From assembly GCA_949152475.1 (NCBI GenBank), contig OX424562.1, positions 41,588,157-41,652,156 on the forward strand: a stretch of 64,000 nt of DNA, given 5' to 3'. The notes beneath the pieces were generated by a model. That model saw nothing but the letters and a program-made list of their open reading frames with translations, was not told the origin of the DNA and did not search any database. A program made the translations under genes and the position numbers. Numbering within the stretch: position 1 is the stretch's first letter; each line of letters begins with the position of its first letter. Shown in pieces: positions 3,001 to 64,000 of the stretch. Origin of the DNA: Terebella lapidaria (lineage: Eukaryota > Annelida > Polychaeta > Terebellida > Terebellidae).

Positions 3001-3173
3001 GACCGTAACTGGACGTCAGCATGTATAAATTCTTCATACTTGGTCAACCAGTATCTGTAATGTTCCTGCACCAACCTGGGAGATTCTACTTCTATATGGC
3101 CTTGTATTATTTCTTCTTCCTCTTTTAGCTGTTTCAGGCACTTTCTGTAGGATTCTACCCTTCTTTCTGTCAT
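1..3173 (-). CDS. BEL/Pao retrotransposon Gag-protease-reverse transcriptase polyprotein, partial
   Basis: I read this minus-strand frame codon by codon: it has no stop from 3407 down to the left edge, so the polyprotein continues outside the window. Counting from the first ATG (3171-3173): a charged coiled-coil-like region at about residues 90-190, a Gag (DUF1759-type) region from about residue 295 (FKGDIFDFPIWLNTYNVL), three Cys/His clusters at about 525, 558 and 576 (CRLC..., CFGCLRWGHRRLEC, CKIC...H), an aspartic protease at about 650 (ALLDDQSDASFI, the DUF1758-type DDQS active site), and the RT from about 860 with RIVYNCS and CDIEGMFHQV, ending at the edge. Conserved-looking sequence (TASGRDVKLSERGLEW) lies upstream of the first ATG, and a splice-acceptor-like pyrimidine tract plus CAG is at 3360-3356, so the true start may be in an upstream exon. 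RNase H and integrase are outside the window. Family assignment is firm; the start is not. Confidence 0.93.
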   Translation of the reverse strand, partial: MTERRVESYRKCLKQLKEEEEIIQGHIEVESPRLVQEHYRYWLTKYEEFIHADVQLRSVLEEEDVIKLEENKQKMMTFKAKVEDFLVGQKCDTASHYSRRTRTSLSSQTKAKMMRLEEEQKKAELEARAGALQKQHEIEESMYKIETENRRLEEELRVSMSKLRREEEMLKLQTELQATKARMEVIDNFENNSQPSENTEQNDVIDYMRQSMTVKTDTNNNDDEEKQAAANMKPFEIPQYTSTPAGPPKGDEVKSAGLSPVFADSRNNMSWPSAISSLADALVNREETRLPRKEPEVFKGDIFDFPIWLNTYNVLVEEYYPRVTDRVYYLGRYTDGEAKKCIKGLLALNNETAYNKAKETLQRRYGDKLLLTTAYREKLDKWPQVKSGDGKTMRDLSDFLNQCETAMLTLGQLEVLNDPTEHRKILGKLPKRVQDKWLSLVDSWIYESGREETYPPFSKLCEFISKQARIMSSPLNITIADDKKPSSGKANSARSFASNARESKNATDKTTVEKTTSPDHNKQKCRLCKDAHPLEDCSKFKAMTLTNRQEFIRKNALCFGCLRWGHRRLECKHKKQCKICQLHHPTILHDYAYTKKPDTSAIPDDSQQHQNVSSYCVDVDGHSENNCSHSLILPVMIYHKDSPEKKVVVYALLDDQSDASFITDSVLEKLSMTGETVRLKLSTVLAEDVIDCMKVNDLVVKGLQEDVEVNLPSVYSRSAIPAKLNQIPRRETAEQWPHLKEVARKIHPCIPDTEVGLLIGMNCPRAIRPRTIVAGKEDDPYAVHTNLGWGIIGMMKCTTETENYHSSCQLVRTRPERQCHFSFRTQTKEVCPLAVKQMFEMDFAEQPSDERLSAEDRKFLQIMDQGMHIRRDGHIELPLPLRNKPLKLQNNRVVAEKRLEQLQRKFSRETQYQEDYHVAMETMIEKGYVEEVPAADALDDSVWYIPHHGVYHPQKPGKLRIVYNCSIEYRGQCLNNNLLSGPDQIKNLIGIICRFRQNHVGVTCDIEGMFHQVGVSEPYRDYLRFLWWKNDKVTEYRFTVHLFGATSSPACAIYALR

Positions 3174-3407
3174 CCATTCTAGGCCTCTTTCAGACAGCTT
3201 CACATCTCGACCACTCGCAGTTTGCAGTTTACAATCGTCACTGGTCGTATCTTGGTCGGGAAATACACACGCATAGAGTTTTACTGTTGTAGTTGGGGAA
3301 TCTTGTTTATTGACATAATCGTAATCGTTTTCTCCACTCTTGTATATACGTAAAACTGAAATACAAAAATAAAGCCCTATGAATATGTGGTCATACTTAT
3401 ATGCGTG

Positions 3408-9677: not shown

Positions 9678-9973
9678 TGTAGTGAAAATGACGTAACTTA
9701 ACTTGAGTAAGCTGTATACGGGGTAGTGTGGCACCGCGCAACCCAATTGGATTAATGGGAGGCTGCACGTGACCTGCTGGTGCCTGGGAGGGAGCTTCGA
9801 CTGGGCAAGAGCGTCAGTTGACCGTTGGCTTTCACCGAGTACAGAGGCATTGGACCCTGACATCGACACACACACCGGCGGCCGTCAACTCACCTGTCTG
9901 CTGGATCGGCCGACGATCAGCAGAGAGACCAACGCAATACAGCACAGAATTAAGGTAAACGGATTTCACTTCA
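9678..9973 (+). repeat. 5' LTR of the gypsy element
   Basis: 296 bp, TG...CA bounded, matching 27849-28145 except for 5 substitutions and 1 single-base indel counted by eye. It should carry promoter and polyadenylation functions; I could not place them. Confidence 0.95.
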
Positions 9974-12681: not shown

Positions 12682-12829
12682 ATGGCTCTCAACACAGCCA
12701 CCCTGGAGGAGCTCAGGACCTTGCCTTCTATTGGGGAGAAGCGGGCAAGGGAGATCCAGCAGCTACAAAACTCTGCACTACCCATTAGCATGGAGGCTCT
12801 AGTGATGGCCACCAACTTGCCAGCTGAGC
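12682..12829 (+). CDS. gypsy Gag, N-terminal part with helix-hairpin-helix motif (gene split by LINE)
   Basis: ATG at 12682 opens a frame whose first 49 codons include NTATLEELRTLPSIGEKRA (about residues 4-22), a clear match to the helix-hairpin-helix pattern of ComEA-like DNA-binding proteins (N-T-A-x-x-E-E-L-x-x-L-P-x-I-G-x-x-x-A). The frame is interrupted at 12829 by the LINE and continues in register at 19949, so the two pieces were one gag gene of about 660 codons. An in-frame ATG at 12574 could add 36 residues; I prefer 12682 because the motif follows directly. A DNA- or RNA-contacting role for the motif in Gag is inference. Confidence 0.8.
12814..12829. repeat. LINE target-site duplication, left copy
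   Basis: AACTTGCCAGCTGAGC, repeated exactly at 19933-19948 after the LINE's A-rich tail. A 16-bp duplication is typical of target-primed reverse transcription. Confidence 0.93.
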
Positions 12830-12906
12830 TTCGGTGTTTAGCATGGAGAGGTGAACGCATGTGAAAATTTCTCTCCACATCTTTGCATAGAACAAACATA
12901 GTTTAA

Positions 12907-13110
12907 ATGAGTTATGACGAAGTTAAAGCAAAGATAAGTATATCAATTGAAGTGCAAAAGACTAAATATTCTTTTCGTGTGGTTCTGCTCGAGAAAGAAG
13001 TCGCTCAGCAACTTGAACGGAGGTCTGCAACTGACACCCTCTGGCTCGACACGTGCGCGGCCACGGTCAACAATGTAGATCTAGACATATGCAGCAAGAA
13101 AAATGACTGA
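12907..13110 (+). CDS. Small open frame upstream of and overlapping LINE ORF1
   Basis: 67 codons with no recognised domain. Its stop overlaps the ORF1 start in ATGACTGA (13103-13110), an arrangement compatible with stop-start reinitiation. It could instead be the old ORF1 N-terminus in a shifted frame, or chance. Confidence 0.35.
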   Translation: MSYDEVKAKISISIEVQKTKYSFRVVLLEKEVAQQLERRSATDTLWLDTCAATVNNVDLDICSKKND

Positions 13111-13918
13111 ACGTGCTGAATGTGTGATGCAAGTGAACCAACCGCTGATGACAGAATTCCTAAAGGAACGCTCTGAAGTGAGTTCATGGACACCAACTTC
13201 AACCGATACAAACAGAAAAAGAAACAGGTCTGAAGTGTCTCCACTAGCTGACAACGAGAACAAGATGCCGAGAGAGGAGGTATGCTTGCCAGTGTTACCA
13301 GAAGACTCACCAACATGGGCGCTCACTATGTACAGCGGTCTACAGCTAGCTATCGGCAAGCGTTATGATGAACTGTCGACAAAAATAAATGACGTGAGTA
13401 CCAGCATGAGCATACAGCAGAATCAAATTAGAGCCCTGGAGCATGAAACCACAGTACTCAGCCAGAAAATACAACAGCTGGAAGATATACAGAAGAAAAC
13501 GCATGATAAGGTACTCAACCAAGACATGTACTCTAGAAGAGATAACCTACTGTTCCACGGACTGACAGAATCAACCTGGGAGACCCCTGAACAATGCTTA
13601 GCCAAAGTGAGTCAGTATATTGCAAACCTAGGAGTTACTATCGACAATAACAAGATCGCGGTGGCACACAGTATTGTGCGACCACTGGGAAAAAAGAACT
13701 CGAAACCACGCACAATCATCGTCAGGTTTGCCAACTACACAGTCAGGCAACAGGTCTGGCAAGCGAGACCGAAAACAGCAGAAAATGAATACATCACTCA
13801 ACACATCCCAGAAGAAATACAAGTTGAACGCCGCATACTGAGCCCAATTCTTCAGGCAGCAAAATCTATGGACATTACAAGGACAAGTGTCACATTCGAG
13901 GAGACAAATTGGTGTTGA
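13103..13918 (+). CDS. LINE ORF1 protein (L1 ORF1p / Transposase_22-like), frameshifted at its end
   Basis: A nucleic-acid-binding chaperone-type protein of L1 elements. Residues about 85-140 form a coiled coil (heptad-rich IQQNQIRALEHETTVLSQKI), followed by an RRM-like domain (YSRRDNLLFHGL, RTIIVRFANYTVRQQVW) and the start of the C-terminal domain (HIPEEIQVERRILSPIL). In this family the chain continues with a DKLVxNxxxYTxxTLHTLP-type segment; that segment is present here one frame over (from about 13893), so a single-base frameshift near 13890 separates the end of ORF1 from the NADAR domain. The stop at 13918 is therefore secondary. Confidence 0.88.
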   Translation: MTERAECVMQVNQPLMTEFLKERSEVSSWTPTSTDTNRKRNRSEVSPLADNENKMPREEVCLPVLPEDSPTWALTMYSGLQLAIGKRYDELSTKINDVSTSMSIQQNQIRALEHETTVLSQKIQQLEDIQKKTHDKVLNQDMYSRRDNLLFHGLTESTWETPEQCLAKVSQYIANLGVTIDNNKIAVAHSIVRPLGKKNSKPRTIIVRFANYTVRQQVWQARPKTAENEYITQHIPEEIQVERRILSPILQAAKSMDITRTSVTFEETNWC

Positions 13919-14478
13919 ACAACACTGTCTACACAACAGAAACACTGCATACTCTGCCGGTCGATCTGGACCCCCGTACAATATCAACACCAAGGAAAGG
14001 GGGCTGTGTGTTCTTTTGGGGGCGCAACTCGCCGCTCTCAAACCACCATCCAAGCCCATTCGTGATAGATGACATGAAGTTCAGTTGTGTTGAACAATAT
14101 CATCTGTATCACAAAGCCAAATTCATCGGAGATCAATCAATAGCCCAGGCTATTATGGAAGAACCAGACCCAGCCAAACAAAAGCAGATTTCCAAGGGCA
14201 TCAAGATAGAGAAACAGAACAAGACTAGCTGGAATACGATCGCACTACAGCAAATGGAAACAGCGTTACGAGCCAAATTCGCCCAGAACCCTGCACTCAA
14301 GTCATTTCTCCTAGAGTACACTGGATCTGACGAAATCGTCGAAGCGTCACCATACGACAAGTTCTGGGGCTGTGGTCTCGGCCTGGACGATGCGAAACTT
14401 GAGGACAAAGAAAACTGGTCGGGAAAGAATCACCTTGGAGAGACAATGATGCATGTCAGGAGAGAGTTAATGAAGTGA
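13893..14478 (+). CDS. NADAR domain, C-terminal part of the LINE ORF1 fusion
   Basis: After the end of the ORF1 C-terminal domain (DKLVLNNTVYTTETLHTLP) the same frame runs directly into a complete NADAR (YbiA-like) domain: FFWGRNSPLSNHHPSPF, FSCVEQYHLYHKAKFIGD, SPYDKFWGCGLGLDD and NWSGKNHLGETMMHVRREL, in the family order and spacing, stop at 14478. NADAR proteins act on ADP-ribose/NAD-derived or riboflavin-pathway N-glycosides; the VEQ glutamate and the WG motif of the family are kept. There is no intron and no separate promoter, and the frame is continuous with ORF1 apart from one frameshift, so I read it as an ORF1-NADAR fusion. What it does for the element is unknown. Confidence 0.9.
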
Positions 14479-14930
14479 GGAAGTGAAAATGAGAATGTTT
14501 GTGACAAAAAAAAAAAAAAAAAAAAAATGTGTGATGTATTCTTATGATGAAAATATAAAAGTAAAGGTTATTATACCATGAATGTCAGGACTGATTGCTG
14601 TTTAATTTGAGAACATTGTTCTAATTATGTTTGTAAATAGGGCAGGTGTAAGTTGTTGGAAGGTAGAATATGGAATGATATAATGGATGTGAAACGTTCA
14701 AATATGATATGTGGACAAATCACGAGTTACCATGATTAGGCAGGTTCATGTGATTTATGACAAATGTACCTCAGGCATATGTTTTGTGTCCACTGATTTA
14801 CACCTGAAAGGTCACGACCGACTGCTGGCTAATGGTTACAAGGAAATTAAAATGTCAATGTCGTGCATTATAATGCAGTATTATATACTAGTATGCAGTA
14901 GAAAAACAAGATGAATCATTGCATCCAATT

Positions 14931-14969
<39 letters not shown>

Positions 14970-15969
14970 AATAAGTTAAAAAAAAAAAAAGTTTGTGTTC
15001 AGAAAATATTCTATGTTCAGAAAATATTTTCATGAAGATGTGCTGTAAAAAAAAAAAAAAATAAATAAATAAATAAAAAAAAAAAAAAAAAAGTGTATGG
15101 AATCATACTTACATGTATTATTGTATATCTAGCTATGAATGGTATGGCTACGATGTGAATAGGTACATACAATAGTATGGGAAACTATGTTATCCAATCT
15201 ATGTAGTGTGTACTCATATTTACCTATGTTCAGAGAACTTTTTTTTCTGAAGTTGTAATGTTAAGAGAAATTATATATACATGTATGCACATCACTCCTA
15301 CTGTATATCTAGCCGGAATGGTAAGACTACAATGTGAATATGTGGTTAGAAGCTTATACTGATTCGGACCCTATGACCTGGCAACCCACGTGTACGTTAT
15401 GGCTGTAATTAATCAAAAATTGTCTACTCTCTTGATGAGACACTGTGTACTTCAAAATGTACTAGACCGGACAATGTACGAATGTTTTGGAAAACCATAT
15501 CAGTGGTCTAGGTTTTGTTTCATTGGTTGGAGAATCCAATGAATCATGAATGTTTATGTGTGCTCGAGAGTTGTCTATAGGTATATGTTTAGCTCAAGAC
15601 ATAGGAGGTAAAGACCGATATTAATTTACATGTATAATGGTTGGAATAAGTTCATATCAATTTAACGATATAAGGTTTAGTAATAAGGAGTATTTAAGGA
15701 CTCATTTTTGAACTTGATGAAAAAGAAAAATGAAATATTGCAAAAGCTGGGAGAAAGTCACTTGTTGCGTTCAATTATCCGTCAAATGTCATGTCATTTG
15801 TTTCAAGTGTAGATACAACACTGTGTCTATACTACAACTTATCTTTACCATTTTTGCAGAAAATATTCCAATGTCCCACATGTTTTATTGTTCCACGGAT
15901 TCAGGAAAGACAATTATATAGTACATGTGTATTTGAAAACAACGTCTGTTATTATAATATATTGTATAC
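14479..15969 (+). other. Inter-ORF region of the LINE with poly-A tracts
   Basis: An unusually long gap between ORF1 and ORF2. Homopolymer A runs lie at 14506-14527, 14935-14967, 14978-14990 and 15047-15092 (the last with TAAA units). Two diverged direct copies of a roughly 170-bp unit follow: GTATATCTAGCTATGAATGG near 15124 and GTATATCTAGCCGGAATGG near 15303, each with GTTCAGA(A/G)AA nearby. No convincing open frame. Confidence 0.6.
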
Positions 15970-17583
15970 ATGCAGTCATATATGGATACTAACTATGTGA
16001 AATGCATATCAATGAATGTACGGGGGCTACGTGATAAGACAAAACGTAGAAAGGTGTTTCAATGGATTCAATTACATGAACACGATATAATTTGTGTCCA
16101 GGAATCTCACTCAAGTCCTGATATGGAGACAGTATGGAAAAAAGAATTTGAAGGAACAAATATTGTATTCTCACATGGTGCAAAAAATGCTAGAGGTGTA
16201 ATGATCATGTTTAAGAGAACTGTATCTATTGATATTCATGAAACTATAACTGATGGTGATGGAAGATATATCATAATGGATGTCACAATTGGTGAAAAAA
16301 GGTTTACCCTGGCTAATGTGTATGGCCCTAATAGGGATGATAGGGAGTTTTTTATGAAAGTTTATACAGATGTTGAAGGTCTCCCGAATGACAATAGAAT
16401 AATTGTAGGTGATTTCAATCATATTTTAAATCCATTATTAGACAAAAAAGGGGGACGTTATGACCATGCAAATATTGGAGCTAGAGAGGTAACTATGAAA
16501 TACTTAGAGGAATGTGAAATGGTGGATATTTTTAGGAGGCAAAAACCAAATATTAAAAAGTTTTCTTATCATACCACAGGCCCAGATATTGTGTTCACTA
16601 GATTAGATTTAGCCTTGGTATCATCTGGGCTTGTATCTTTATGTGAACAATGTGACATTATTCCAGGTTATTGTAGTGATCATTCATTTGTGACTTTAAA
16701 GATACTTTGTCATGAGCTAGAGAGGGGTAAGGGATTTTGGAAAATGAACTGTTCCTTTTTAAAAGATAAAGACTATATTACTGAAATCAGGGATGAAATA
16801 AAATATATAGTAGAATTTAATAGCAAATCTAATCCCCAGTTACTTTGGGATACAATAAAAATGGCGGTACGAGGACGTAGTATTCAGTATTGTGCTAGGA
16901 AAAAAAGAAGCCGTAAAAACTTATTAGAAAAATTAGAAGAAAAATTAGCAAAGTTACAACTTGATTATGCACAAAAAAAACAAGATGAGGTTTTGAATAA
17001 TATCCAAGCAATAAAACAAGAAATTGATCAACTTATAACGGAACAAACAAATGGTGCTATTTTAAGATGTAAACTAAAATGGCATGAAGACGGCGAACGG
17101 GCAACAAAATATTTCTTGAATTTGGAGAAAAGACAATATAATAAAAAGAATTTGACAATCTTGAAGGATAATGATGGAAATATCATCACAGGAAATGAAT
17201 CAATTTTAAATGAGGAGGTTACATTCTATTCTAAACTTTATACAGGAAAATACCCTTTAGAGACCACTGCAAATGATGAAAAACCTTTTTTAGATGAAAG
17301 TATTGAACGGAGGACTTTAACAGATGAGGAACAAACTTGTATAGATGACTCAATCATTGGAGAATCTGAATTAGTAGAAGCTCTAAAAAATATGAAAAGG
17401 GGAAAAACTCCTGGTAATGATGGGTTGCCAAAAGAATTTTATGTTGTGTTCTGGTCAGATATAAAAACTTATTTGCTGAATTCTATAAATTATGCTTTAC
17501 AAACAGGTTCCATGGGTTTAACACAACGACAGGGGGTAATCACCTTGCTCCCAAAACAAGGAAAAGATCCTTGTTACTACTAA
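15970..17583 (+). pseudogene. LINE ORF2, endonuclease and start of reverse transcriptase (frameshifted)
   Basis: The apurinic/apyrimidinic-type endonuclease is at about residues 10-245: MNVRGLRDKTKR, the catalytic QES (residues about 44-46), YGPN, GDFNHI (nt about 16408) and SDHSFV (nt about 16675) are all present, so the catalytic set looks intact. The reverse transcriptase follows, starting with GKTPGNDGLPKEFY. A single-base deletion near 17570 (the KDP/LLLL junction) moves the frame, and the remainder is in 17571-18704. The QES/GDFN/SDH set and the later NWRPISLLNTDYK place it in the L1/Tx1 superfamily. ATG at 15970 is the first in frame. Confidence 0.9.
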
Positions 17584-18704
17584 AAAACTGGCGCCCCATT
17601 TCACTACTTAATACCGATTACAAATTATTGTCAACTGCCATTGCAATGAGATTAAAAAAATTCTTTAAAAAAATCATAAGCACTGACCAAACAGGGTTTA
17701 TTTCAGGGAGATATATCGGTGAAAATATAGTTAATATACTTGAAATAATGAACTATTGTGACAAGAACGATGTTTCCGGTATTTTTGTAACCATCGATTT
17801 TGAGAAAGCGTTCGATATGCTTGAGTGGTCTTATGTGCAAAAAAGTTTGGACTTCTTTAATTTTGGTCCTGGGCTTAAAAAATGGGTTAAAATAATTTAT
17901 AACAATATAACAAGTTGTGTGCTTAATAATGGTTGGTTCTCGCCCCAGTTTCTGTTGACATGTGGAATGCGGCAAGGTTGCCCATTATCACCATATCTGT
18001 TTATTATTAGTGTGGAAGTTTTGTCAATATATTTAAAACAAAACAAGAAAATAAAGGGCATCATTATAAATGAAGTGGAACATAAAGTAAATCAGTATGC
18101 GGACGACACGGCCCTGACCTTACAGTACGATATAGATTCCCTCAAGATGTTATTTGATAGCTTCAATACATTTGAAAAAATATCTGGTTTAAAAATAAAT
18201 AAATCCAAAACAAATATAATCCCACTAGGCCCTTTAAAAAATGACTATCACCATACTCCTTTATTAGATCAAGTTACCTGGTGTGAGGAACCAATACGTT
18301 ATCTTGGCATAACATTGTCTCATAATGTAAGAGATATTTTTGAATTAAATTTCAACCCAATAACTGCAAAAATGAAGTTGTTGATGAACATATGGCACCA
18401 GAGAGAATTAACATTATATGGTAAAACTACAGTAATAAAATCACTGTTGGTACCTAAACTAATATTCCTTTTTTCAGTTATACCAGATCCACCTGTTTAT
18501 TACATAGAAAACGTGACCAAACTCCTATTTAAATTTCTTTGGGCAAACAAACCAGATAAGATAAAAAGGAATGTTATTTATAATAATGAGGATCAAGGGG
18601 GGGTAAATATGGTGCATTTAGAAACTCAGTGTAAAGCATTGAAAATAGCATGGGTTAAAAGATTTTTGGATGAACCGTCTGCAAGGTGGAAAATTTTTTT
18701 TTAA
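17571..18704 (+). pseudogene. LINE ORF2, reverse transcriptase core
   Basis: Continues ORF2 after the frameshift: NWRPISLLNTDYK, DQTGFISGRY, FVTIDFEKAFDMLEW, GMRQGCPLSPYLFIIS and the catalytic QYADDTAL (about nt 18095), then the thumb (GLKINKSKT, LGITLS). All RT motifs are readable. It ends at an in-frame TAA (18702-18704) within a T-run; the same frame then continues to 19775, so this is one stop, not the natural end. Confidence 0.9.
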
Positions 18705-19775
18705 GTAAATTGTACTATAGATTTTAGTGATTTTTTACAGTGTAATTTAGTTGCAGAAGACGTCCAATATGTATGTAATAGTGTACAATCCGAATTTATC
18801 AAAGATATTCTGAAAGCTTGGTTTTCATACACTTATCGACCTGTAGAAAAAGACGATCCTGTGGAATACATAGTAAACCAATTTTTGTGGTTCAATTCAA
18901 ACTTGAAAATTGAAGGAAAAGTAACGTATTATAATGATTGGTACAATAGCGGAATTAAATGTATTCGAGACCTGCTATGTGAAGACCACATAATGCCATA
19001 TGAACAATTTGTTGACAAATATGATGTATCAACACATTTTCTGATATATTATGGTGTTGTGGATGCTATACCAATTGTCTGGAAACAAAAACTTCGTGGT
19101 GCACCTGCTATTCTTGGTAACGATGTACCTGTATATAATAGTGCTATAACAAGTTTGATCAAAATGAAGAAAGTGTGTCGTACAGTGTATCCACATTTAC
19201 TGAAAACAATTGTTCAGAAACCAACAAAGGCAAGACAATCATGGTCAACTTTATTTTCTGTTGAGATAAGTGAGTCCGACTGGGTAGAACATTTTTCACT
19301 CTTGTATCAATTGACAATATCCACAGAACTGTTATATTTACAATTCAGGTTGTTACATAATATATTACCAACAAATGCGTACCTATTTAAGATAAAACTC
19401 AAAGATTCCCCTATGTGTAATTTGTGCAAAGAGCATAAAGAAACAGTAGAACATTTATTTATACATTGCAAATTTGTAAAGATATTTTGGGTAGAATTTG
19501 AAACTTATATTAGAAGATATTTTCCAGATTTTTGTAACTACCAGCCAAATCAGCTATTGTTGTTGAATATAGAAAGTACAAATATTTTGTATGATCTGTT
19601 GTTTCTAATAGCAAAAAGATATATATATACATGTAAGTTATACTCTGTGCCACCTGTCATGAATAATTTTGTTAAAAAATTGAAAAATTACAGATCTCAA
19701 GAGGAGGACATTGCTGTAAGGAAAAATAGGGAATGTGACTATTTAGAGAAATGGAGAGGCTTTACCGAAATGTAA
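18705..19775 (+). pseudogene. LINE ORF2, C-terminal region with CCHC motif
   Basis: In frame with 17571-18704 after the single stop. It carries the L1/Tx1-type C-terminal zinc motif CNLCKEHKETVEHLFIHC (about nt 19414-19470) followed by FVKIFWVEF, and ends naturally at 19775. About 157 bp of 3' untranslated sequence and an A-rich tail follow. Confidence 0.85.
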
Positions 19776-19932
19776 CTTAACCGTATCGTACATTCATAAG
19801 GTTGTATTATTCATTTTTGTATAGGCTGCATATGTACTTAAAAAAACCGTATAATTGTAACTCAATGCGAGTCTGTGGAATATGTTGTACTGCGGAATAT
19901 TGGATTTAAAAAAAAAATAAAAAAAACAAAAA

Positions 19933-19948
19933 AACTTGCCAGCTGAGC
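19933..19948. repeat. LINE target-site duplication, right copy
   Basis: Exact copy of 12814-12829 directly after the A-rich tail. Confidence 0.93.
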
Positions 19949-21795
19949 ATTTTGCCAATCTGATCAATGACGATCTGATAATGAGCGTTGCACAAAGCTG
20001 TAGCTACAAGCCACCCGGTAAGGATGAAAGCAGCATTGGTGCTACATGCGACTCCAGGAACCCTGAGTCCGATGCTCAGGCCAAACTCCAACGTCTGAGG
20101 GCAGAGCTGGCGTATTATAAGAACCAGGAGGAAGTAGCTCTTCGAAAGCAAGATCTGCACTGTTCGAGAGACCAGAGGAAGTCAGGAAAGGCGAAGTATG
20201 AGTCAAACACCGGGTACGAAGACTTCAGATCATCATTAGAAATGGAACCATCAGGAGGATCAGCTTTTCCGACAGACAAGATGAGGGGCTGTTACCCGAT
20301 AGGTAATGTCTACCGCCGTCAGCCTCAGTTTCCCTCAGAATCAGGGTCATCAGGACAGGAGGAAAAGCATGTTCCAGGTCGTTCCATGGGAGCGCCATCA
20401 TTGTCTAGGGACCGAAAACCACTTCACGGCATGTTTCCAGGGCAGGGCCAGTTCCAGCGGCCCACACGTGACTATTCTGCTGAGTGGGGAAGGCTGTACC
20501 AGTCGCCCACTGGACGACGACAGCAGGACAACGGTTCGGGGCCATTGCAACGAAGACCGAGACAAAACCCTCCACTGGAGCGGGAAGATTGTCGGGGAAG
20601 ACCTGAGCCACAACGTCCAGGGCGCCAGCATTCACCACCAGCAAGACGACGACCAAGAGGATGCTACTCCTCTGCAGAGAGTGACTCCAGTGACGAGGAG
20701 TTGGTTAGCTCAGAGTCCAGCACGGAGGAATCCGAGGATGACATGGAACATGCGGTGGGACATCAGCACCGAAGACGGAGGAGGAGTCCTCCCGCGCCAA
20801 AGATGGTTACATTCAATGGTGATTCCTCACAGTGGAGGGCCTTTAGCTTTCAATTCAAGCAGACTGTCAGAGCGCACCATCTGCCCGACAGAGCCCGCCT
20901 TGAATACCTGATGGCATGTCTGAGAGACAAAGCGATAGCATTTGTCAGCACACGACCACGTCATGTCCGCCATGACTATCACCTGCTATTGAGGGCACTG
21001 AAGAAGAGATACGGACATGGTGACACGGCGAAGAATCTCAGGAAGCAGCTGCATCATGTTAAGCAGGAAGAACAGGAGTCCCTCGATGATTTTGCGGACC
21101 GAGTGTATCGTCTTACTCTGGATGGATACCCAGGGATCGGTACAAGGATGATGAACGAGTTTGCTGTGGACGCTTTTCTGAGGGGTTGCCGAGATCGATC
21201 AGCAGCATTCCATGCTGGGGACAAGGATCCCAAGAGCATAAGCAAGGCATTGGCTCATGTGAAGAAGGCTATCTGTAACCATAAAATCTTCGGTTACTCT
21301 ACCAAGGGGTCAGCCTCGACCCGACAGGTTCATTTTGAACAGGAGTATGAGGAAGTGCCAGTCCGCCAAGCGGTGACAAGGGACCGTTCAGGACGGGAAC
21401 GTCTGGTAGCTACTGATAAGAGTGTTCATCAGGAGAATCTGCCATCATTTGGAGAAGATGCATTCTGTGAGAAGCTGTCAAAAGCTCTGGCATCAAGCAT
21501 GAAGGATATGTTTGTGACAAACATGCAAGAGATCCAGAATGTTCTGAGACAAAATAGGGTCACCTTCAGGTCACCTACTCCAAGAGGATGTTTCCGTTGT
21601 GGGAAGCGAGATCATATGCAAGCCGACGGTCCTTTGAAATCTGAGAAATCGGGGTCACTAGTTTGTTTCAACTGTGGTGAGGAAGGTCATTTCCGAAGAG
21701 ATTGTAACAAAGGATGTCGGGGGTCGACTTCACCAAACAGAGGGGGTCATTTAAACTCGAGCGGGGCGAGTCCACTGGCCAAGACTCAGCCCTAG
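19949..21795 (+). CDS. gypsy Gag, main part (capsid and zinc knuckles)
   Basis: Same frame as the N-terminal piece at 12682-12829. It has a short coiled coil (AKLQRLRAELAYYKNQEEVA), a long Arg/Pro/Ser-rich linker, a Ty3-type capsid region (about nt 20800-21290: FNGDSSQWRAFSFQFKQTV, LMACLRDKAIAF, YGHGDTAKNLRKQL, ESLDDFADRVYRLTLDGYPG) and two zinc knuckles: a degenerate CFRCGKRDHMQADGP that lacks its last Cys, and a canonical CFNCGEEGHFRRDC (about nt 21665-21706). Stop at 21795. This assembles and packages the element's RNA. No internal lesion other than the LINE was seen. Confidence 0.92.
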
Positions 21796-22196
21796 ATCTC
21801 AACCTCGTGGCCAGAAGCAAAGAAATCGTAAACGTGGGAACGACGAAGTCTAAGCGTGTAGGAGATGGCAAGTCACCTCAAGCACCAGACCATTTTGACC
21901 AGCTTTGCACCTCATTCCGGAAGCACTCTTTGACTGGGGATAGTCCGGGCAACAGGGAAATCCAGGAAGGGTCCATATCTGAGCAGGGGGAGGCATCAAG
22001 TGAATCCGGATTCCAAGCAGTTGGAATAGACAAGAGTGTTGACAATGGGGGTAGAATTCCGGATGGAGTTATCTGCCTGGAACCACATCACTTGGTTCAG
22101 CCTCCGGACAGTCAGAGTGCCGAAGGCATTGTTGTAGGGTGTAATGGGAGCCCAGGAACTCCACCCCAATTGGATGGCACCTGCACCTGCAGATGA
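21714..22196 (+). CDS. Open frame bridging gag and protease
   Basis: 160 codons in a different frame from gag, overlapping its end by 82 nt and overlapping the protease frame by 53 nt. The composition (Ser/Gly/Glu-rich linker) has no domain. The overlaps fit frameshift-mediated Gag-Pol expression, but the frame could equally be a product of decay. Confidence 0.4.
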   Translation: MSGVDFTKQRGSFKLERGESTGQDSALDLNLVARSKEIVNVGTTKSKRVGDGKSPQAPDHFDQLCTSFRKHSLTGDSPGNREIQEGSISEQGEASSESGFQAVGIDKSVDNGGRIPDGVICLEPHHLVQPPDSQSAEGIVVGCNGSPGTPPQLDGTCTCR

Positions 22197-23061
22197 GACT
22201 GAACAAGTACTTGAAGAGCAAGGGGTACCTGGGAAGGTCCAGCCAGTGGAAATGAAGGCAGGCATATCAATTCACATTCCAGTCATGGTAGGAGGTCACT
22301 GCTTGAGGGGCACAGTTGATACTGGGGCCCAGGCGACTATCATTAGCACTAGGATAGCGGCTGTATGTGGACTGATTATTACGGCAAATACTCCAAGAAT
22401 TAAACTTAGTGGAGCATTTCAGGGCCCAGGCACGATGGGTATGCTGTTATGCAATGTGAAGATGACCATTGGTCAGAGCAGCTTCGACTGGGATTTGATA
22501 GCATCCGATATCACAGATGATATATTGTTGGGCAACTATCTGCTTACAGCAAGAGAAGCAATAATCAATCTCAATAATGCAACAATCCAGTTTAGAAAAG
22601 ACTTGGTGAGCTTCCAGTCTTCCGGTGAGAATTCATCTTGTGTACATAGAGTGACGGTGGCTAAGCGAACAGTGATACCACCGTGGAGTCATAAGCTCGT
22701 TCCTTGCACGGTTGCAGGTACTTGCAACCAAGGTCCTGATCATGTGATAGAAACCATCTCGTTGAATGATCCACTGATGGCATCCAGGTCGCTGGTCAGT
22801 AACAATTCGGAAGCAACCTTGGATTTTTGTAATCTTTCTGATCGATTCGTGACGATGAAGAGAGGCCGATGGGTAGGAAATGCCATGGAAGTAATGCAAG
22901 TAGCGGGTACGGAACCTGTGGCGCCAGTTGAAGAAGTACTGGTGGGCCAAGTCACCAATGCTGAAGAATTGTTGGATGTTGAGGCGGTGCGGTCACAGCT
23001 ACCAGAGCATCTCGTGCAATTGTGGGAAAGTAGTAGCCAACAGCTAAGTGATGACCAGTAG
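22144..23061 (+). CDS. gypsy protease and connecting region
   Basis: A retropepsin-type aspartic protease: GTVDTGAQATIIST holds the catalytic DTGA at about nt 22318, with the flap/second half ending in DDILLGNYLL. It matures Gag and Pol. A TAG at 23059-23061 ends the frame; the same frame resumes immediately (23065-23262, MLGNLLSQYGDVFAQH, HRIDTRDAKP), which is the usual lead-in to a Ty3-type RT, so the stop is a lesion. Confidence 0.85.
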   Translation: MGAQELHPNWMAPAPADETEQVLEEQGVPGKVQPVEMKAGISIHIPVMVGGHCLRGTVDTGAQATIISTRIAAVCGLIITANTPRIKLSGAFQGPGTMGMLLCNVKMTIGQSSFDWDLIASDITDDILLGNYLLTAREAIINLNNATIQFRKDLVSFQSSGENSSCVHRVTVAKRTVIPPWSHKLVPCTVAGTCNQGPDHVIETISLNDPLMASRSLVSNNSEATLDFCNLSDRFVTMKRGRWVGNAMEVMQVAGTEPVAPVEEVLVGQVTNAEELLDVEAVRSQLPEHLVQLWESSSQQLSDDQ

Positions 23062-23064
23062 GTC

Positions 23065-24275
23065 ATGCTGGGCAACTTATTGTCACAGTATGGTGATGTT
23101 TTCGCACAACATGATTTCGATTTGGGTAGCTTTGCTGGGACGCAACACCGAATTGATACCCGCGATGCGAAGCCAGTTCATCATCGTATGCGCCGAACAT
23201 CAATTGGTTTTGAAGGGGAAGAAGCAGCTCATCTACAAAAAATGTTGAAGACATTTTGTTGACAGACAAAAATGTTGGAGTCATTGAAGAATCGCAATCA
23301 GAGTGGGCGTCGGCTCCCGTGTTGGTACGAAAAAAAGATGGTTCCGTCCGGTACTGCGTCGATTTTCGTGATTTGAATGCCAGAACGGTGAAGGATGCCT
23401 TCCCGTTACCATTGAATAGTCAGTGTTTGGATACGCTGCATGGCTCACAGTGGTTCACCACGCTTGACCTAGCCAGTGGATACTGGCAGATAGAGGTCCA
23501 CCTGGATGATCGGCATAAGACGGCATTCATTACGAAGCAAGGGTTGTTCCAACACCGACGTATGGCGTTTGGGCTTTGTAACGCGCCCGCTACGTTTCAG
23601 AGAGCCATGAACACGGTGCTAAAGGGTCTTACTTGGGATAGGGTGTTGGCGTATCTAGACGATGTGATAATACTGGCCAAGACATTCGAAGAGGGGATTG
23701 ACAATCTACAGGAAGTATTTGACCGATTTCGACATTTTAACTTGAAACTGAAACCAAAGAAGTGCTGCCTATTTCGCACTGAAGTGGATTTCCTAGGCAA
23801 AAAGGTTAACCGCGAAGGTATCACTATCACAGATCAGAAAATCAGTACGATACAGTCTTGGCCAGTCCCCGCCAACAAGAAAGAGCTGGAATCATTCCTG
23901 GGGTACATGAATTACCATCGGGAGTTTATCCCAAGGTATGCAGAGATCACAGAAGTGTTATACAAGCGAATTCATGCCAAGGACAAGTTCGTCTGGAACC
24001 AAGATCATCAGGCAGCTTTTGAGAAGCTGAAAAAGATAACCAGCTGTCATCCGTTCCTAGCCTTTCCGAACAAAGATGATGTGTTCATCCTGGATATAGA
24101 TGCCAGTGACTGGGCTATTGGGGCAGAGTTGTCTCAACTTCAAGAAGGTGTAGAAAGGACGATAGCATACTCCAGTAAAAGTTTCTCCAGCACAGAGGAA
24201 GTACTGTACGACGAGGAAAGAACTCCTTGCATTGGTCGCTTTTACAAGACAGTTTCGGTATTACCTGTTGGGTAG
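23065..24275 (+). pseudogene. gypsy reverse transcriptase and start of RNase H, frameshifted
   Basis: Starts in frame with the protease, then shifts by about 23250 (a short duplicated ACAAAAATGTTG region); the RT continues in the frame of 23256-24275: SEWASAPVLVRKKDGSVRYC, FTTLDLASGYWQI, AFGLCNAPATFQRAM and the catalytic YLDDVIILA (about nt 23650). RNase H begins with FILDIDASDWAIGAELSQ. A second single-base lesion near 24203 throws the frame; the true continuation (a TTRKELLALVAF-type segment) is in the next entry. All catalytic residues I can check are present. Confidence 0.88.
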
Positions 24276-26247
24276 ACGTTTCATCATTCGCACGGATCAC
24301 AGTAGTCTAGTGTGGTTGACGAGGTTTGAAAGCCCTGAAGGTCAACTTGCGAGATGGTTGGAAGAGATAAGTCAATATGACATGCAAATTGTTCATAGGA
24401 AGGGGGCTAAGCATGCCAATGCTGATGCCTTGTCACGGAAACCAGAAAATGACTTTTGTAGCTGTTACGAAGCTGGTGTGCATCTAGAATCGCTACCATG
24501 TGGAGGTTGTGCTTATTGTAGCAGAGTTCACAGACAGTGGGAAAGGTTTGAGTTAGATGTGGATGACGTTGTTCCGATTTCCATCAGAAGCGTGTCAGGG
24601 ACAGCGGAGTGCTTGTCGTTGGGTGTCTATTCTAAGGCCGAGCTAGCATCTTTTCAGAGAGAAGATCCAGATTTGTCTGTGATCATGAAGTGGTTGGAGA
24701 CGGGCACAGAGCCCCAACAAGCGGAACTCAGTCTGCAAGGTCCTTTTGTGAAGCGTCTATGGCGGGATCGAGCACAATTGGTTCTAAATGAAGCTTTGTA
24801 TTACCAGTGGGAGGAGAGCGGGACACCAAATCGTCTGAAACTGGTAATGCCAGAAAGTCTGAATAAGGAAGCGCTGAAGTTGGCTCATGACCACAAGACA
24901 TCGGGCCATTATGGAGTTGGCAGGACCAGAGAGCGACTGAAGTACAGTTTTTATTGGCCGCAATTGTATCTTGCCGTTCAAAATTATGTTGGGACCTGTG
25001 CTGTGTGCAGCATGAGTAAAAGGGCGAATCGAAAAGCAAGGGCAGCATTGGGAAGTTATCATGCTGGCATGCCGATGCAGAGGATCCACATCGATATGTT
25101 AGGACCATTCGTGGTAAGTAATCGTGGGAATCGGTATGTGCTTATGATCACAGATCAATTTACGAAGTGGATAGAATGTCATGCAGTACCCCATCAATCA
25201 GCTGAGCAGGTGTGTAGGACTTTGATCGACAACTTCATCAGCCGTTTTGGGATTCCGTACCAGATACACACTGACCAGGGAAGGAATTTCGATGGTAACC
25301 TCTTTCGAGAGCTGTGTGATGCCTTAGAAATCACCAAAACACGTACGACTCCTTACCACCCCAGCTCAAATGGTCAGGTTGAACGGTATAATAGAACGCT
25401 ACTTCAGGCGATTCGTAGTTACATTGGAGATGACCAGAAGTTATGGGATGTCCATCTTCCTTTACTGGGGATGGCGATGCGTAGTATGATTAATAGGAAC
25501 ACTGGGTATACACCGAACTACTTGATGCTTGGTCGGGAGGTGTCATTGCCAGATCATCTGTTCGGCGTGGCATTGGAAAATGATGGTCATAGTGGGATAC
25601 CAGAGTACGTCGTGTCATTGACGGCTAACATGAAGAAAGCTCATGATGAGGCTCGTAAACACATTAGGCAGAGCCAACAGAGACAACAGTCCACCTACAA
25701 TGAACGGCTCAATTTCCGACAGTATGATGTAGGCGACTTAGTGTATAAAATCGATTCTGCAACAAAAGTGGGTCATAGCAACAAACTACGTCCGGTCTGC
25801 ATAGGGCCCTATATAGTTCTGGAAAGGTTGTCACCAGCCCTGTATCGAATACAAGGTCGCAAGAAGTCTCGAGTAGTTCATCACGATCGGCTGAGGCTTT
25901 GCAGAGACCGAGATATCCCTCTGTGGGTCCGCCGTAAGCGACACCAACTGCAGTTGCTGGATAATCAGGACATTGAGACGAAAGATAGAGAGAACGCCTT
26001 AGACGAACTGGGATTGACAGATTTGTTTTTCTTGCCACCCATTCCTCCCGGGAATCCTACCGAGAGTCCTTCCGAGAGTCGACCTCCCGACAAGGAACAA
26101 GTGGAAGGAGCCAGGACGGAGTCGTCTTCACAAAATCCAGACAATGGTGTGGAGGAGTCGAAGAGTGTTACTCAGACTCCGAAGCGGAGCCGGAGTGGCC
26201 GAAATCTGAAGACCCCAGCGTTTTTAAAAGATTTTGTTCGGGATTAG
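24204..26247 (+). CDS. gypsy RNase H end and integrase
   Basis: Reads on from the frameshift near 24203: LLGRRFIIRTDHSSLVWL completes RNase H. The integrase has an HHCC zinc domain (H...SGHYGVGR...FYWPQL...CAVC, about nt 24889-25012), the catalytic core with D in HIDMLGPF (about 25089), D in HTDQGRNF (about 25270) and E in SSNGQVERYNRTL (about 25380), a GPY-type C-terminal module (GPYIVLERLSPALYRIQ) and a basic tail ending RSGRNLKTPAFLKDFV. It inserts the cDNA; the observed 4-bp duplication fits. Stop at 26247. No chromodomain seen. Confidence 0.92.
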
Positions 26248-27848: not shown

Positions 27849-28145
27849 TGTAGTGAAAATGACGTAACTTAACTTGAGTAAGCTGTATACGTGGTAGTGT
27901 GGTACCGTGCAACCCAATTGGATTAATGGGAGGCTGCACGTGACCTGCTGGTGCCTGGGAGGAAGCTTCGACTGGGCAAGAGCGTCAGTTGACCGTTGGC
28001 TTTCACCGAGTACAGAGGCATTGGACCCTGACATCGACACACACACCGGCGGCCGTCAACTCACCTGTCTGCTGGATCGGCCGACGATCAGCAGAGAGAT
28101 CAACGCAAATACAGCACAGAATTAAGGTAAACGGATTTCACTTCA
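27849..28145 (+). repeat. 3' LTR of the gypsy element
   Basis: 297 bp, differing from 9678-9973 by 5 substitutions (such as C/T near 27904, G/A near 27963, C/T near 28100) and one extra A. Followed by the GAAC duplication at 28146-28149. Confidence 0.95.
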
Positions 28146-59880: not shown

Positions 59881-60933
59881 TTACATGAATCTTTTTGTTT
59901 GCACAATATACTGGTGTACAGATATCATGATATCATTATTGGTAGTAACGGTACTTGTAGGATGGCCGTGCATTATGATCGAAAAAAGTTGTTTCCTGGT
60001 TAGCTCTGGATTTGATAAATATGTTTTTATTTTTTCAATCATAGCATCCCTGACCATTAGATAAGCAGGGCAATCAAGGAAATAATGGATTGGATCTTCA
60101 GTACGATGTTCGCATTTGGGACAAATGGCATTTTCGACAAAATTATAACTGAATCGTTGGGAGTTAAGGGCACTCAGCCCCATACGTATTCGGCTGAGAT
60201 TTACTTCGCCGTGTCCGTAGCCATGTGACCGTACCTTGGTTCGTTTTGCAGGAAAAATCGATTGCTTAGTTTTCTTTTTAAAATGAAGTAGAGTAGGAAG
60301 GTTTCGAATATTGGGGGCCGTTATATTCCATAACCGAATTGATGATGGGAAAAATGACATTAACGATCTCGCAAAAGGAGCGCGCAAATGGTCGTTGTTC
60401 CTCAAGACGTATCTATGATTCCGAGGAACCTCGTCAATGATTATATACAAATATTGTGGTACTTGCCTGTTAACGATTTTATAAAACAGAGATAGTTTGT
60501 AGTATTTTCTCCTCTCGCAGAGGAGCGGCCATCCAACCTCATCCATCAGAGCGCGATGACTCGTGTGTCTGTATGCTCCAGTACATAATATAGCGGCATT
60601 TCTTTGAGATTTTTCCAAAAGGTTAGACAAAAAGTTCGTGCAGTTGTCGTACAGAAGACGCCCATATTCAAGAACTGGTCTGATGAAAGATATATACATT
60701 TTTTCTTTGCAGTCACGAGGCAGTGTCCGTGAACATTGCATCAATAAATTCATCATCGGTGCCGCCTTGTGGATACGAGAACGAATATGAGCCTCCCACG
60801 ACATATTGTGGGTAAGTATTACACCAAGGTGGTTATGCTCCTGTACACGGTTTGTACACATAAAATATTGTAGGTCTATATCTAATCTCATTGCGTTTCC
60901 CTGAGATAACGATATATCCAGACTTAGGCGCAC
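59881..60933 (-). pseudogene. LINE ORF2: RT thumb and C-terminal domain
   Basis: Continues the RT after a frameshift near 60900 (the KRN/AMRLD junction): HNHLGVILTHNMSWEAHI, then SFIRPVLEYGRLLYDN (thumb), a long C-terminal helical region and a zinc-binding motif CPKCEHRTEDPIHYFLDC. Natural stop at 59881. About the first 13 residues of this open frame are out of register with the element's protein. Confidence 0.85.
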
Positions 60934-61228
60934 TAAATTTCACTGCCCATTGCTTAGCCCAAAATTCGATTTTGAGTAAGTCATCGTTCAATTCATATAT
61001 ACTCTGAACTGGATCGCGAATTATTTTCATCAATGAGCAATCATCAGCATATAAATACATATCAGTGCCAATGTCTTGTACAATATCATTCACAAAAATT
61101 AGAAAAAGTAAGGGCCCCAAGATTGAGCCCTGGGGCACACCTGCTTTTATAGCCAACCATTCAGAGTGTTGTCCGTTGATTAGCACTCGCTGCTTACGTT
61201 CCAATAAATAACTTTCCAACCAGTTCAA
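60833..61228 (-). pseudogene. LINE ORF2: RT palm
   Basis: LLNWLESYLLERKQRVLING, AGVPQGSILGPLLFLIFVND and the catalytic YLYADDCSL are all present. The upstream in-frame TGA (61244-61246, in place of a probable Gly codon between LRSF and IHGNLLNW) separates it from the previous piece; it then loses frame near 60900. Confidence 0.88.
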
Positions 61229-63630: not shown

Positions 63631-64000
63631 TTAGCTCCATCTTGTCTTGGCGTCGATGTTGTGAGTATCCAGGAATTCGGATCGCAGCGACATCAGCATA
63701 TTTCCAAGCTTGTTTTGGCCTGTCCAGTTGCGTCTATCGTGAAGTTTCTTGTCATCGAGTGAAAGACCACAGCCCCATGTTTTGTCGAACGGATTTGCCT
63801 CATCGAGTATGTCACTACCAGTTTCCAGAAGCACGGTCTTGAGAAAGTTGTTCTGAGAAACATTTGCTCGGAGTCACAGGTACATAGCATCTGAGGCGAC
63901 ATCGCTCTCGCTCCATTCCTTGTCGGTCCCACTGATACTTCTACCAATTTTTTTTACGTCTGGGTTCTAGAGCAGAAAGTATGGAGGTCGCAGCTTTGGT
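63631..64000 (-). pseudogene. NADAR domain, C-terminal part (cut by window edge)
   Basis: Minus-strand frame ending at TAA (63631-63633). It shows the NADAR C-terminal half: QNNFLKTVLLETGSDILDE, ANPFDKTWGCGLSLDDKKL, NWTGQNKLGNMLMSLRSEF. These correspond line by line to the NADAR of the L1-type LINE (EASPYDKFWGCGLGLDD, NWSGKNHLGETMMHVRREL). Upstream in the same frame KKIGRSISGTDKEWSES resembles the family's middle part, separated by an in-frame TGA at about 63884; another stop occurs near the edge. The N-terminal half is outside the window. It lies in the same orientation 333 bp upstream of the 2A-EN-RT frame, so it may be the end of that LINE's ORF1. Confidence 0.8.

What the first reader, a model, noticed from the sequence alone, without database searches (positions are those of the whole stretch)
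13103..14478. L1-type LINE whose ORF1 ends in a NADAR domain
ORF1 (coiled coil, RRM-like, C-terminal domain) runs into a full NADAR domain with only one frameshift in between, and the whole is inside a LINE bounded by a perfect 16-bp target duplication. NADAR enzymes act on NAD/ADP-ribose-linked or riboflavin-pathway substrates and appear in genomic conflict systems. A retrotransposon carrying one as part of its RNA-binding protein suggests it counters or exploits ADP-ribosylation (for example of DNA, RNA or repair factors at nicks). The fusion is seen; the role is inference.
Basis: partly seen in the sequence, partly recalled or inferred. Interest (0 to 1): 0.88.

Follow-up and report, generated by a model that had tools for sequence, protein, structure and literature searches.

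The report
Retrotransposon ORF1 protein carrying NADAR domain
A jumping gene in this animal genome makes an RNA-binding protein that ends in an enzyme-like domain of the kind that strips ADP-ribose off DNA; the join is kept by natural selection and recurs in many copies and in a second, different class of jumping gene in the same genome.

Summary
A full-length L1-superfamily LINE (12830-19932; 16-bp target duplication) encodes ORF1 (coiled coil, RRM, CTD) ending in a complete NADAR domain (Pfam 6e-41; the model matches ADP-ribose-bound NADAR 8bau). The frameshift is private to this copy: two 99% identical copies read ORF1-NADAR in one 464-aa frame.

Of 39 closely related ORF1 cores in the genome that reach the core's end, 35 run straight into NADAR. 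NADAR is under purifying selection: dN/dS 0.08 and 0.19 in the two unsaturated pairs, both outside the window's own family. Two active-site glutamates are invariant in 63 of 63 LINE NADARs compared.

From chosen loci, 42 distinct single-frame ORF1-NADAR proteins were read.

NADAR in Tx1 LINE ORF1s of Pacific oyster is already noted in one passage in print (PMC12477816); the second LINE class and the selection, co-divergence and active-site results add to it. Likely role: an ADP-ribose eraser carried on the LINE particle. The activity is inferred, not shown.

The parts
12814..12829 (.). left target-site duplication AACTTGCCAGCTGAGC
   Evidence: longest shared word of the two flanking stretches
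12830..19932 (+). whole L1-superfamily LINE, nested in the gag frame of an LTR retrotransposon
   Evidence: TSD; four other copies begin at window 12831; gag reading ..ATNLPAE / NLPAEHFAN.. on either side, each flank read apart
12830..13102 (+). 5' untranslated region, with a 67-aa frame (12907-13110) overlapping the ORF1 start
   Evidence: no evidence that the small frame is a gene
13103..13900 (+). ORF1, first part: N end, coiled coil, RRM-like domain, most of the CTD (joined residues 1-266)
   Evidence: frame 13085-13918; homologues; the model of relative P0011 matches the human L1 ORF1p trimer
13898..13900 (+). place of the 1-nt loss that splits ORF1 in this copy
   Evidence: absent from the two 99% identical copies
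13900..14478 (+). ORF1, second part: end of CTD, linker, NADAR domain, stop
   Evidence: frame 13828-14478; Pfam NADAR match at 14011-14469; AF2 mean pLDDT 92.0; 8bau E 6e-10
14092..14094 (+). Glu equivalent to E43 of the Phytophthora NADAR
   Evidence: E in 63 of 63
14113..14115 (+). Lys equivalent to K50
   Evidence: K or R in 52 of 63
14341..14343 (+). Glu equivalent to E125, the YbiA-subfamily mark
   Evidence: E in 63 of 63
14479..15969 (+). A/T-rich spacer between ORF1 and ORF2 with several A runs
15970..19775 (+). ORF2 (endonuclease, reverse transcriptase, zf-RVT), broken into frames 15958-17583, 17421-18704 and 18705-19775
   Evidence: closest solved structure human L1 ORF2p, 191 bits against 57 for R2
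19909..19932 (+). A-rich 3' tail
19933..19948 (.). right target-site duplication
63631..64000 (-). second LINE: C-terminal half of its ORF1 NADAR domain and stop (broken here); the ORF1 core lies beyond the window in L019:1101-2143 (-)
   Evidence: PF08719 62.8 bits on the 80-aa piece; 225 aa of the core and first NADAR half 97-99% identical to the single-frame ORF1-NADAR proteins L046 and L056
63103..63129 (-). 2A-like peptide GDIEPNPGP at the start of the second LINE's ORF2
   Evidence: similar motifs in L025, L029, L031
59881..63081 (-). second LINE: CR1/L2-like ORF2, broken into several frames
   Evidence: Exo_endo_phos_2 and RVT_1; RT falls with the non-L1 RTs

Best explanation
Shown: in this genome LINEs of two classes (L1-superfamily, and a CR1/L2-like class with a 2A peptide in several members) encode a Type II ORF1 protein (coiled coil, RRM, CTD) with a YbiA-type NADAR domain at its C end, and this fused protein is kept by purifying selection. 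Inferred: the ORF1 part makes a trimer that coats the LINE RNA, as human ORF1p does, so NADAR is carried on the retrotransposition particle. There it removes ADP-ribose from the LINE's own RNA, its cDNA or the target-site DNA, most likely from guanine bases, and so lets reverse transcription and integration go on where host ADP-ribosyltransferases mark foreign or nicked nucleic acid. The anatomy I hold at about 0.97, catalytic ADP-ribose removal at about 0.55, and nucleic-acid guanine as the main substrate at about 0.35.
For: Fusion in one frame in two 99% copies, in 42 distinct ORFs of this genome and in 11 public proteins. 35 of 39 closely related ORF1 cores are followed directly by NADAR. 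dN/dS of the NADAR part 0.078 (L001-L004) and 0.185 (L053-L050), and pN well below pS in all 11 pairs that I chose to test. ORF1 core and NADAR co-diverge (Mantel r 0.90, p 1e-4, 26 own-genome rows). E43 and E125 equivalents 63 of 63 (also all 45 left when near-copies are dropped), D130 56 of 63, W133 55 of 63. The fused relative P0011 folds confidently and matches both ADP-ribose-bound NADAR 8bau and the human L1 ORF1p trimer 2ykp. From papers: NADARs hydrolyse N2-guanine ADP-ribose on DNA, with residues equivalent to E43, K50 and E125 mechanistically involved (PMC11543638, section 12 read); a guanine-specific DNA ADP-ribosyltransferase, CARP-1, exists in shellfish and was proposed to act in innate immunity to DNA viruses and/or in NAD regulation (PMC8053099, passages).
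Against: No activity is measured. The K50 equivalent is Q, M, L, E or A in 11 of 63, and that lysine was essential for efficient hydrolysis in one bacterial NADAR, Arg being tolerated in vitro. In the same enzyme the Glu-to-Ala mutant at the E43 position had only a minor effect in vitro, so an invariant Glu there does not by itself prove catalysis. NADARs outside DarT operons were active in vitro but did not protect cells efficiently against DarT1 (PMC11125620, passages), so guanine in DNA may be the wrong substrate. No DarT match in the genome. The unsaturated dN/dS values come from pairs outside the window's L1 class. NADAR may not be universal: of the 83 weaker ORF1-core hits, 31 have one of the 150 listed NADARs directly downstream and 52 do not; of 23 CR1/L2-like ORF2s matched from near their N end, 7 have one upstream (read by eye). 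The 823 unscored NADAR candidates leave open how many of these lack it.
Confidence: 0.55

Rival explanations
1. Reader, not eraser: NADAR binds ADP-ribose without needing to cut it and steers the LINE particle to nicked, PARP-marked DNA or to ADP-ribosylated proteins, helping it find insertion sites.
For: The K50 equivalent is lost in 11 of 63 LINE NADARs; the same active-site residues also contact ADP-ribose in 8bau, and Glu-to-Ala at the E43 position had little effect in vitro (PMC11543638); LINEs integrate at nicks (recalled).
Against: E43 and E125 equivalents are invariant in 63 of 63, as expected if hydrolysis matters, though both also contact the distal ribose.
Confidence: 0.2
2. RNA-end processing: NADAR trims NAD- or ADP-ribose-type caps or repair products from the LINE RNA, with no host immunity involved.
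For: The Ectocarpus paper suggests processing of RNA intermediates for retrotransposon NADARs (PMC12477816, passages); the nematode NADAR protein SNA-3 works in RNA trans-splicing with the cap-binding complex and needs NADAR residues (PMC9303266, passages).
Against: No cap-processing activity of a NADAR was seen in any passage that I read.
Confidence: 0.15
3. Small-molecule enzyme: it clears soluble ADP-ribose signals or riboflavin-pathway intermediates in the cell, as YbiA does.
For: The YbiA subfamily mark (Glu, not Asp or His, at the E125 position) in 63 of 63; N-glycosidase activity of YbiA on riboflavin intermediates, and the view that phage NADARs act mainly on soluble signals (passages).
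Against: The domain is joined to the RNA-binding ORF1 core by a short linker and co-diverges with it, which a freely acting metabolic enzyme would not need.
Confidence: 0.08
4. Accident: a host NADAR fragment happens to lie behind ORF1 in this copy.
For: In this copy ORF1 and NADAR lie in different frames.
Against: Single-frame fusions in two 99% copies, 42 distinct ORFs and 11 public proteins, with purifying selection.
Confidence: 0.01

Closest known systems
[quoted passage not shown]
   Same: L1-superfamily LINE (Tx1 as a branch of it is recalled), NADAR in the ORF1 protein
   Different: The paper reports it as divergent Repbase hits. The passages that I saw give no junction with the coiled coil/RRM/CTD, no selection or active-site test and no second LINE class. 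I could not compare sequences: Repbase is not held here.
Gypsy lineage of Ectocarpus with NADAR at the N end of Pol (PMC12477816, passages)
   Same: A retrotransposon that has taken up a NADAR domain
   Different: LTR element, brown alga, domain in Pol rather than in the RNA-binding protein
Human LINE-1 ORF1p (PDB 2ykp, 2yko, 2w7a)
   Same: Coiled coil, RRM and CTD in the same order (on relative P0011)
   Different: The human protein ends after the CTD (recalled); here about 160 residues of NADAR follow
DarT1-associated and stand-alone NADAR/YbiA proteins (PDB 8bau, 2b3w; phage NADARs)
   Same: Fold; two of three mechanistic residues in 63 of 63, the third in 52; best phage records 42% identical to the window NADAR
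   Different: Free-standing or toxin-linked enzymes; in the trees they fall apart from the LINE NADARs, two long-branch rows excepted
CR1 and L2 LINEs with PHD or esterase domains in ORF1 (PMC4120745, abstract and passages)
   Same: ORF1 with an added domain, and reticulate exchange of ORF1 domains between LINE lineages
   Different: The added domain here is NADAR, a word that paper does not hold (0 occurrences), and it is shared between the L1 superfamily and a CR1/L2-like class

Membership tests
NADAR superfamily (PF08719), YbiA subfamily | profile match over the whole domain above the curated cut-off | tested here: met
   140.8 bits against 35.1, positions 1-162 of 163
NADAR superfamily (PF08719), YbiA subfamily | NADAR fold | tested here: met
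   AF2 mean pLDDT 92.0; 8bau TM 0.66/0.74, E 6e-10; 2b3w TM 0.59/0.74
NADAR superfamily (PF08719), YbiA subfamily | Glu in the last strand (E125), not Asp or His | tested here: met
   E in the window copy and in 63 of 63
NADAR superfamily (PF08719), YbiA subfamily | active-site Lys/Arg (K50) | tested here: met
   K in the window copy; not met in 11 of the 63 LINE NADARs
NADAR superfamily (PF08719), YbiA subfamily | removal of ADP-ribose or N-glycosidase activity | not testable with these tools
   needs protein
L1-superfamily LINE (L1/Tx1) | reverse transcriptase closest to L1 ORF2p | tested here: met
   191 bits to L1 ORF2p, 57 to R2 among solved structures; Tx1 versus L1 proper not tested (no named references held)
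L1-superfamily LINE (L1/Tx1) | apurinic-type endonuclease, RT, target duplication, A-rich tail | tested here: met
L1-superfamily LINE (L1/Tx1) | Type II ORF1: coiled coil, RRM, CTD | tested here: met
   by homology to P0011, whose model shows them and matches 2ykp; the window's own ORF1 core gave no Pfam match
CR1/L2 LINE (second element) | RT of the CR1/L2 lineage | tested here: inconclusive
   RT clearly outside the L1 class and L031 ORF2 about equally far from L1 (59 bits) and R2 (53 bits) in PDB; the clade name rests on recalled motifs
CR1/L2 LINE (second element) | 2A peptide at the ORF2 N end (known for some such LINEs, recalled) | tested here: met
   GDIEPNPGP in the window; similar motifs in L025, L029, L031; not seen in the other CR1/L2-like loci listed there

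The most novel reading that the evidence does not exclude
ADP-ribosylation of nucleic acid is a standing defence against retrotransposons in this group of animals, and LINEs of two superfamilies answer it with a shared ORF1-NADAR module: a retrotransposon-borne counter-defence enzyme carried on its own RNA particle, exchanged between LINE classes much as phages and RNA viruses exchange NADAR and macro domains.
Probability: 0.3. Interest if true: 0.92.

Novelty: new variant of a known kind. Interest (0 to 1): 0.72.

Why it matters
NADARs occur in many animals with few known roles, and nucleic-acid ADP-ribosylation in animals has few known users. An abundant, selected LINE ORF1-NADAR, with unbroken frames to express, makes a direct test possible: does a retrotransposon need to erase ADP-ribose to jump? 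A yes would put ADP-ribosylation among the defences against transposons and give NADAR a further animal-side function.

Tried and rejected
Chance or chimera: rejected by the copies. Neutral decay: rejected. Of 861 pairs computed, 18 with measurable dS in both parts were listed. The 12 near-identical ones gave NADAR dN/dS of 0.27 to 1.0 where it could be computed (8; the other 4 had no synonymous change), on seven or fewer nonsynonymous changes, and were set aside as uninformative. I then chose 11 pairs; in only two of them (L001-L004, L053-L050) is synonymous change unsaturated in both parts. Both belong to the CR1/L2-like side; for the L1 class there is only pN against saturated pS.

Co-divergence on the 12 fusions first in hand (11 public proteins and the window): r 0.72, but 0.28 (p 0.11) once one of a near-identical pair was removed, so not shown there. 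On 26 own-genome rows it holds (r 0.90), with two near-alike pairs (window with L010, L001 with L004) still in; on all 36 rows r is 0.81.

Single origin: (67 rows after dropping six fragments), two long-branch stand-alone NADARs (P0067, P0068) fall among LINE rows, and the main CR1/L2-like group joins the other stand-alones (97/95; the root is arbitrary). The clean split (16 stand-alone against 32 LINE rows, 100/97) used 7 of the 20 public LINE-type NADARs, left out those two long-branch rows and dropped 18 near-copies. One origin is therefore allowed, not proved; two captures are not excluded.

NADAR-less relatives: three 2-kb stretches upstream of L1-type ORF2s held no recognisable ORF1 at all, so they say nothing. 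Four of 39 cores lack one of the 150 listed NADARs; one has a known internal deletion of about 220 bp. Target duplication of L031: not found (only 10-base words). Relatives in viral contigs by peptide patterns: none confirmed. DarT in the host genome: none.
Full report
WHAT IS THERE. The window holds an L1-superfamily LINE at 12830-19932. It is bounded by a perfect 16-bp target duplication and ends in an A-rich tail. Four other copies in the genome begin their similarity at the same base, window 12831, so the 5' end is complete. It lies inside the gag frame of an LTR retrotransposon; the two repeats taken as its LTRs (9678-9973, 27849-28145) are 98% identical over 297 columns, from which I infer that the insertion is young. 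ORF2 has an endonuclease, a reverse transcriptase closest to human L1 ORF2p among solved structures (191 bits against 57 for R2) and a zf-RVT domain, in three frames in this copy.

ORF1 AND NADAR. ORF1 (13103-14478) runs, with one 1-nt loss near 13898-13900, from a coiled-coil/RRM/CTD protein into a whole NADAR domain (Pfam 6.3e-41). The window's NADAR frame alone folds at mean pLDDT 92.0 and finds the ADP-ribose-bound Phytophthora NADAR 8bau (E 6e-10) and YbiA 2b3w. An intact public relative, P0011 (426 aa), folds at mean pLDDT 92.5 with a long helix (25-117), an RRM-like and a CTD-like part and then NADAR (from about residue 277). In PDB it matches 8bau and the human L1 ORF1p trimer 2ykp. 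So the protein is L1 ORF1p plus NADAR, in structure as in sequence.

OTHER COPIES. A DNA search of the window's own genome (G000, 761.6 Mb) with the ORF1 sequence scored nine candidates and gave ten matches, the window itself included. The two other full-length copies (C3 and C6, 99% identical) are 1377 bases with single 464-aa frames through NADAR, so the frameshift is private to the window. Two copies that lack the 5' part of ORF1 and two more distant relatives (86% and 67%) keep NADAR. One copy (two of the matches) has lost about 220 bp inside NADAR, and one has lost the stretch from the RRM to past NADAR. No copy was seen with an intact ORF1 end but no NADAR. One copy has ORF1 and the downstream part in opposite orientation, as expected of twin priming (the mechanism is recalled).

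HOW COMMON. The NADAR family search of the genome had 973 first-look candidates. It scored 150, all over the cut-off, 144 of them without a stop in the match and 88 in open frames of 400 aa or more. From the 58 loci L001-L058, chosen mostly for high scores and long frames and so not a random sample, 42 distinct single-frame ORF1-NADAR proteins were read. With a different ORF1 core (L035, L1 class) as query, 128 hits were scored of 11,515 candidates. Of the 45 hits of 84 bits or more, 39 reached the end of the core, and 35 of these 39 have a NADAR directly downstream on the same strand. The four exceptions are one known internal deletion, one frame of 232 aa with a stop in the match and two frames of 320 and 440 aa whose NADAR, if any, is not among the 150 listed. 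Of the 83 weaker hits, 31 have a listed NADAR directly downstream and 52 do not; whether those 52 have a lower-scoring NADAR or none is unknown. In public protein sets, 11 of the 13 proteins returned by two searches are single-frame fusions (one of them, P0012, lacks most of the coiled coil; of the other two, P0006 is a NADAR with a PF03747 domain and P0007 an ORF1 fragment). Of the 59 from a third search, 10 keep an ORF1 stretch before NADAR at E of 1.1e-5 or better.

A SECOND LINE CLASS. A six-frame comparison found NADAR again at the window's right end, minus strand (63900-63670, E 5e-20; Pfam 62.8 bits). It is the end of the ORF1 of a second LINE whose ORF2 (59881-63081, minus) opens with a 2A-like peptide, GDIEPNPGP (63129-63103), and carries the Exo_endo_phos_2 and RVT_1 domains. 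Beyond the window, 225 aa of its ORF1 core and first NADAR half are 97-99% identical to two single-frame ORF1-NADAR proteins of 452 and 451 aa, L046 and L056. Its reverse transcriptase, and those of L021-L023, L026, L028, L029, L031, L032 and L033, which lie behind ORF1-NADAR, fall together and far from the L1-class ones (window, L036, L037; 100/100; 13 rows; L035 and L038 did not pass the motif filter). L031 has ORF1-NADAR (424 aa) and an unbroken 1212-aa ORF2 with 2A, though I found no target duplication for it. The name CR1/L2-like is recalled from motifs; no named reference was on hand. Of 23 places where the L031 ORF2 match begins by query residue 104, 7 have one of the 150 listed NADARs upstream (read by eye), so in this class the domain may be far from universal.

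SELECTION AND ACTIVE SITE. For the two pairs with unsaturated change, NADAR dN/dS is 0.078 (L001-L004: 25.5 nonsynonymous and 53.5 synonymous changes, p 8e-24) and 0.185 (L053-L050: 11 and 16, p 3e-5), a little below the ORF1 core of the same pairs (0.108, 0.210). Both pairs lie outside the window's L1 class. In all 11 pairs chosen, pN is far below pS for both parts, among them the window's family against L048 (NADAR pN 0.36, pS 0.83). The counterparts of E43 and E125, which bind the distal ribose in 8bau, are Glu in 63 of 63 LINE NADARs (43 own, 20 public; not independent, but also in all 45 left without near-copies). D130 is kept in 56 of 63, W133 in 55 of 63, and K50 is Lys or Arg in 52 of 63 (rank 51 of 160 columns by conservation); the window copy has all five. 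In a bacterial NADAR the E125-position mutants lost efficient hydrolysis, the K50-position Lys was essential with Arg tolerated in vitro, and at the E43 position Gln inactivated while Ala had only a minor effect in vitro; substitutions at the E43 and E125 positions did not rescue cells (PMC11543638, section 12). The Glu at E125 puts the LINE domains in the YbiA subfamily as described in PMC11125620 (passages).

DESCENT. NADAR trees place the LINE domains apart from stand-alone NADARs (100/99, 100/97, with the exceptions and omissions told under Tried and rejected). The main CR1/L2-like group (100/99) lies between the stand-alones and the other LINE domains. In the ORF1-core tree the same NADAR groups come back as clades, and distances agree (r 0.90). 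ORF1 and NADAR therefore have long travelled as one unit. Whether one capture passed between LINE classes, as ORF1 types seem to do in CR1 and L2 (PMC4120745, abstract and passages), or two captures happened, is open. By tblastn 703 of 50,697 phage records match the window NADAR, the best listed at 42% identity, and 45 viral structures match its model at E 0.001 or better, phages, giant viruses and an RNA-virus polymerase protein among them.

WHAT IT LIKELY DOES. ORF1p coats LINE RNA as a trimer (established for human L1, recalled). A NADAR at its end would sit on the particle. NADARs remove ADP-ribose from the N2 of guanine in DNA (PMC11543638), and a guanine-specific ADP-ribosyltransferase, CARP-1, occurs in shellfish with a proposed immune or NAD-regulating role (PMC8053099, passages). 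RNA viruses of bivalves and other invertebrates carry NADAR too, read as countering host ADP-ribosylation (PMC9503650, passages). Hence the eraser hypothesis. Each step from the domain to its substrate is inference. The missing Lys in 11 of 63 and the poor protection by NADARs from other genetic contexts in E. coli (PMC11125620) count against the simplest form. That this host is a mollusc is itself a guess from the oyster elements.

WHAT IS KNOWN. PMC12477816 (passages) states that ORF1 proteins of several Tx1 LINEs of the Pacific oyster in Repbase appear to contain NADAR domains, and that an Ectocarpus Gypsy lineage has one in Pol. Full-text searches for YbiA with retrotransposon (1 paper, that one), NADAR domain (15 papers), DUF1768 (6), NADAR with retrotransposon (104, 20 listed) and at least three of NADAR, LINE, ORF1, mollusc (24, 8 listed) listed no other report that I recognised as retrotransposon NADAR; I judged from titles and abstract starts and opened only the seven papers named in this report, in passages, one abstract (PMC4120745) and one section (PMC11543638). 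The L1-class case is thus a new member of a known, barely described kind. The CR1/L2-like class with 2A, and the tests of selection, active site and co-divergence, make the whole a new variant.

Noticed in passing
window 63100-64000 (-), continuing in L019: Second NADAR-bearing LINE of another class with a 2A peptide at the start of ORF2.
   Followed up: yes
window 9678-9973 and 27849-28145: Direct repeat pair, 98% identical, taken as the LTRs of an LTR retrotransposon (gag about 12682-12829 plus 19933-21795; pol about 22138-26247 by eye) that holds the LINE in its gag frame.
   Followed up: partly
window 3-3407 (-): 1135-aa open frame running off the window; by eye a BEL/Pao-type retroelement polyprotein (recalled, not tested).
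   Followed up: no
window 12907-13110: 67-aa frame ending on the ORF1 start codon (ATGA overlap).
   Followed up: no
window 14479-15969: Unusually long A/T-rich spacer with several long A runs between ORF1 and ORF2; ORF2 frames also begin about 1.2-1.5 kb after ORF1 in L035, L036 and L037.
   Followed up: partly
G000:C8:827568-828002 (-): NADAR in an 812-aa open frame, about twice the usual length, upstream of a CR1/L2-like ORF2; what else that frame encodes is unknown.
   Followed up: no
P0005 (601 aa): An ORF1-NADAR relative with a further Q/P-rich tail of about 190 residues after NADAR.
   Followed up: no
G000:C3:50904740-50908929: Copy of the window's LINE with ORF1 inverted against ORF2, as in twin priming.
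   Followed up: partly
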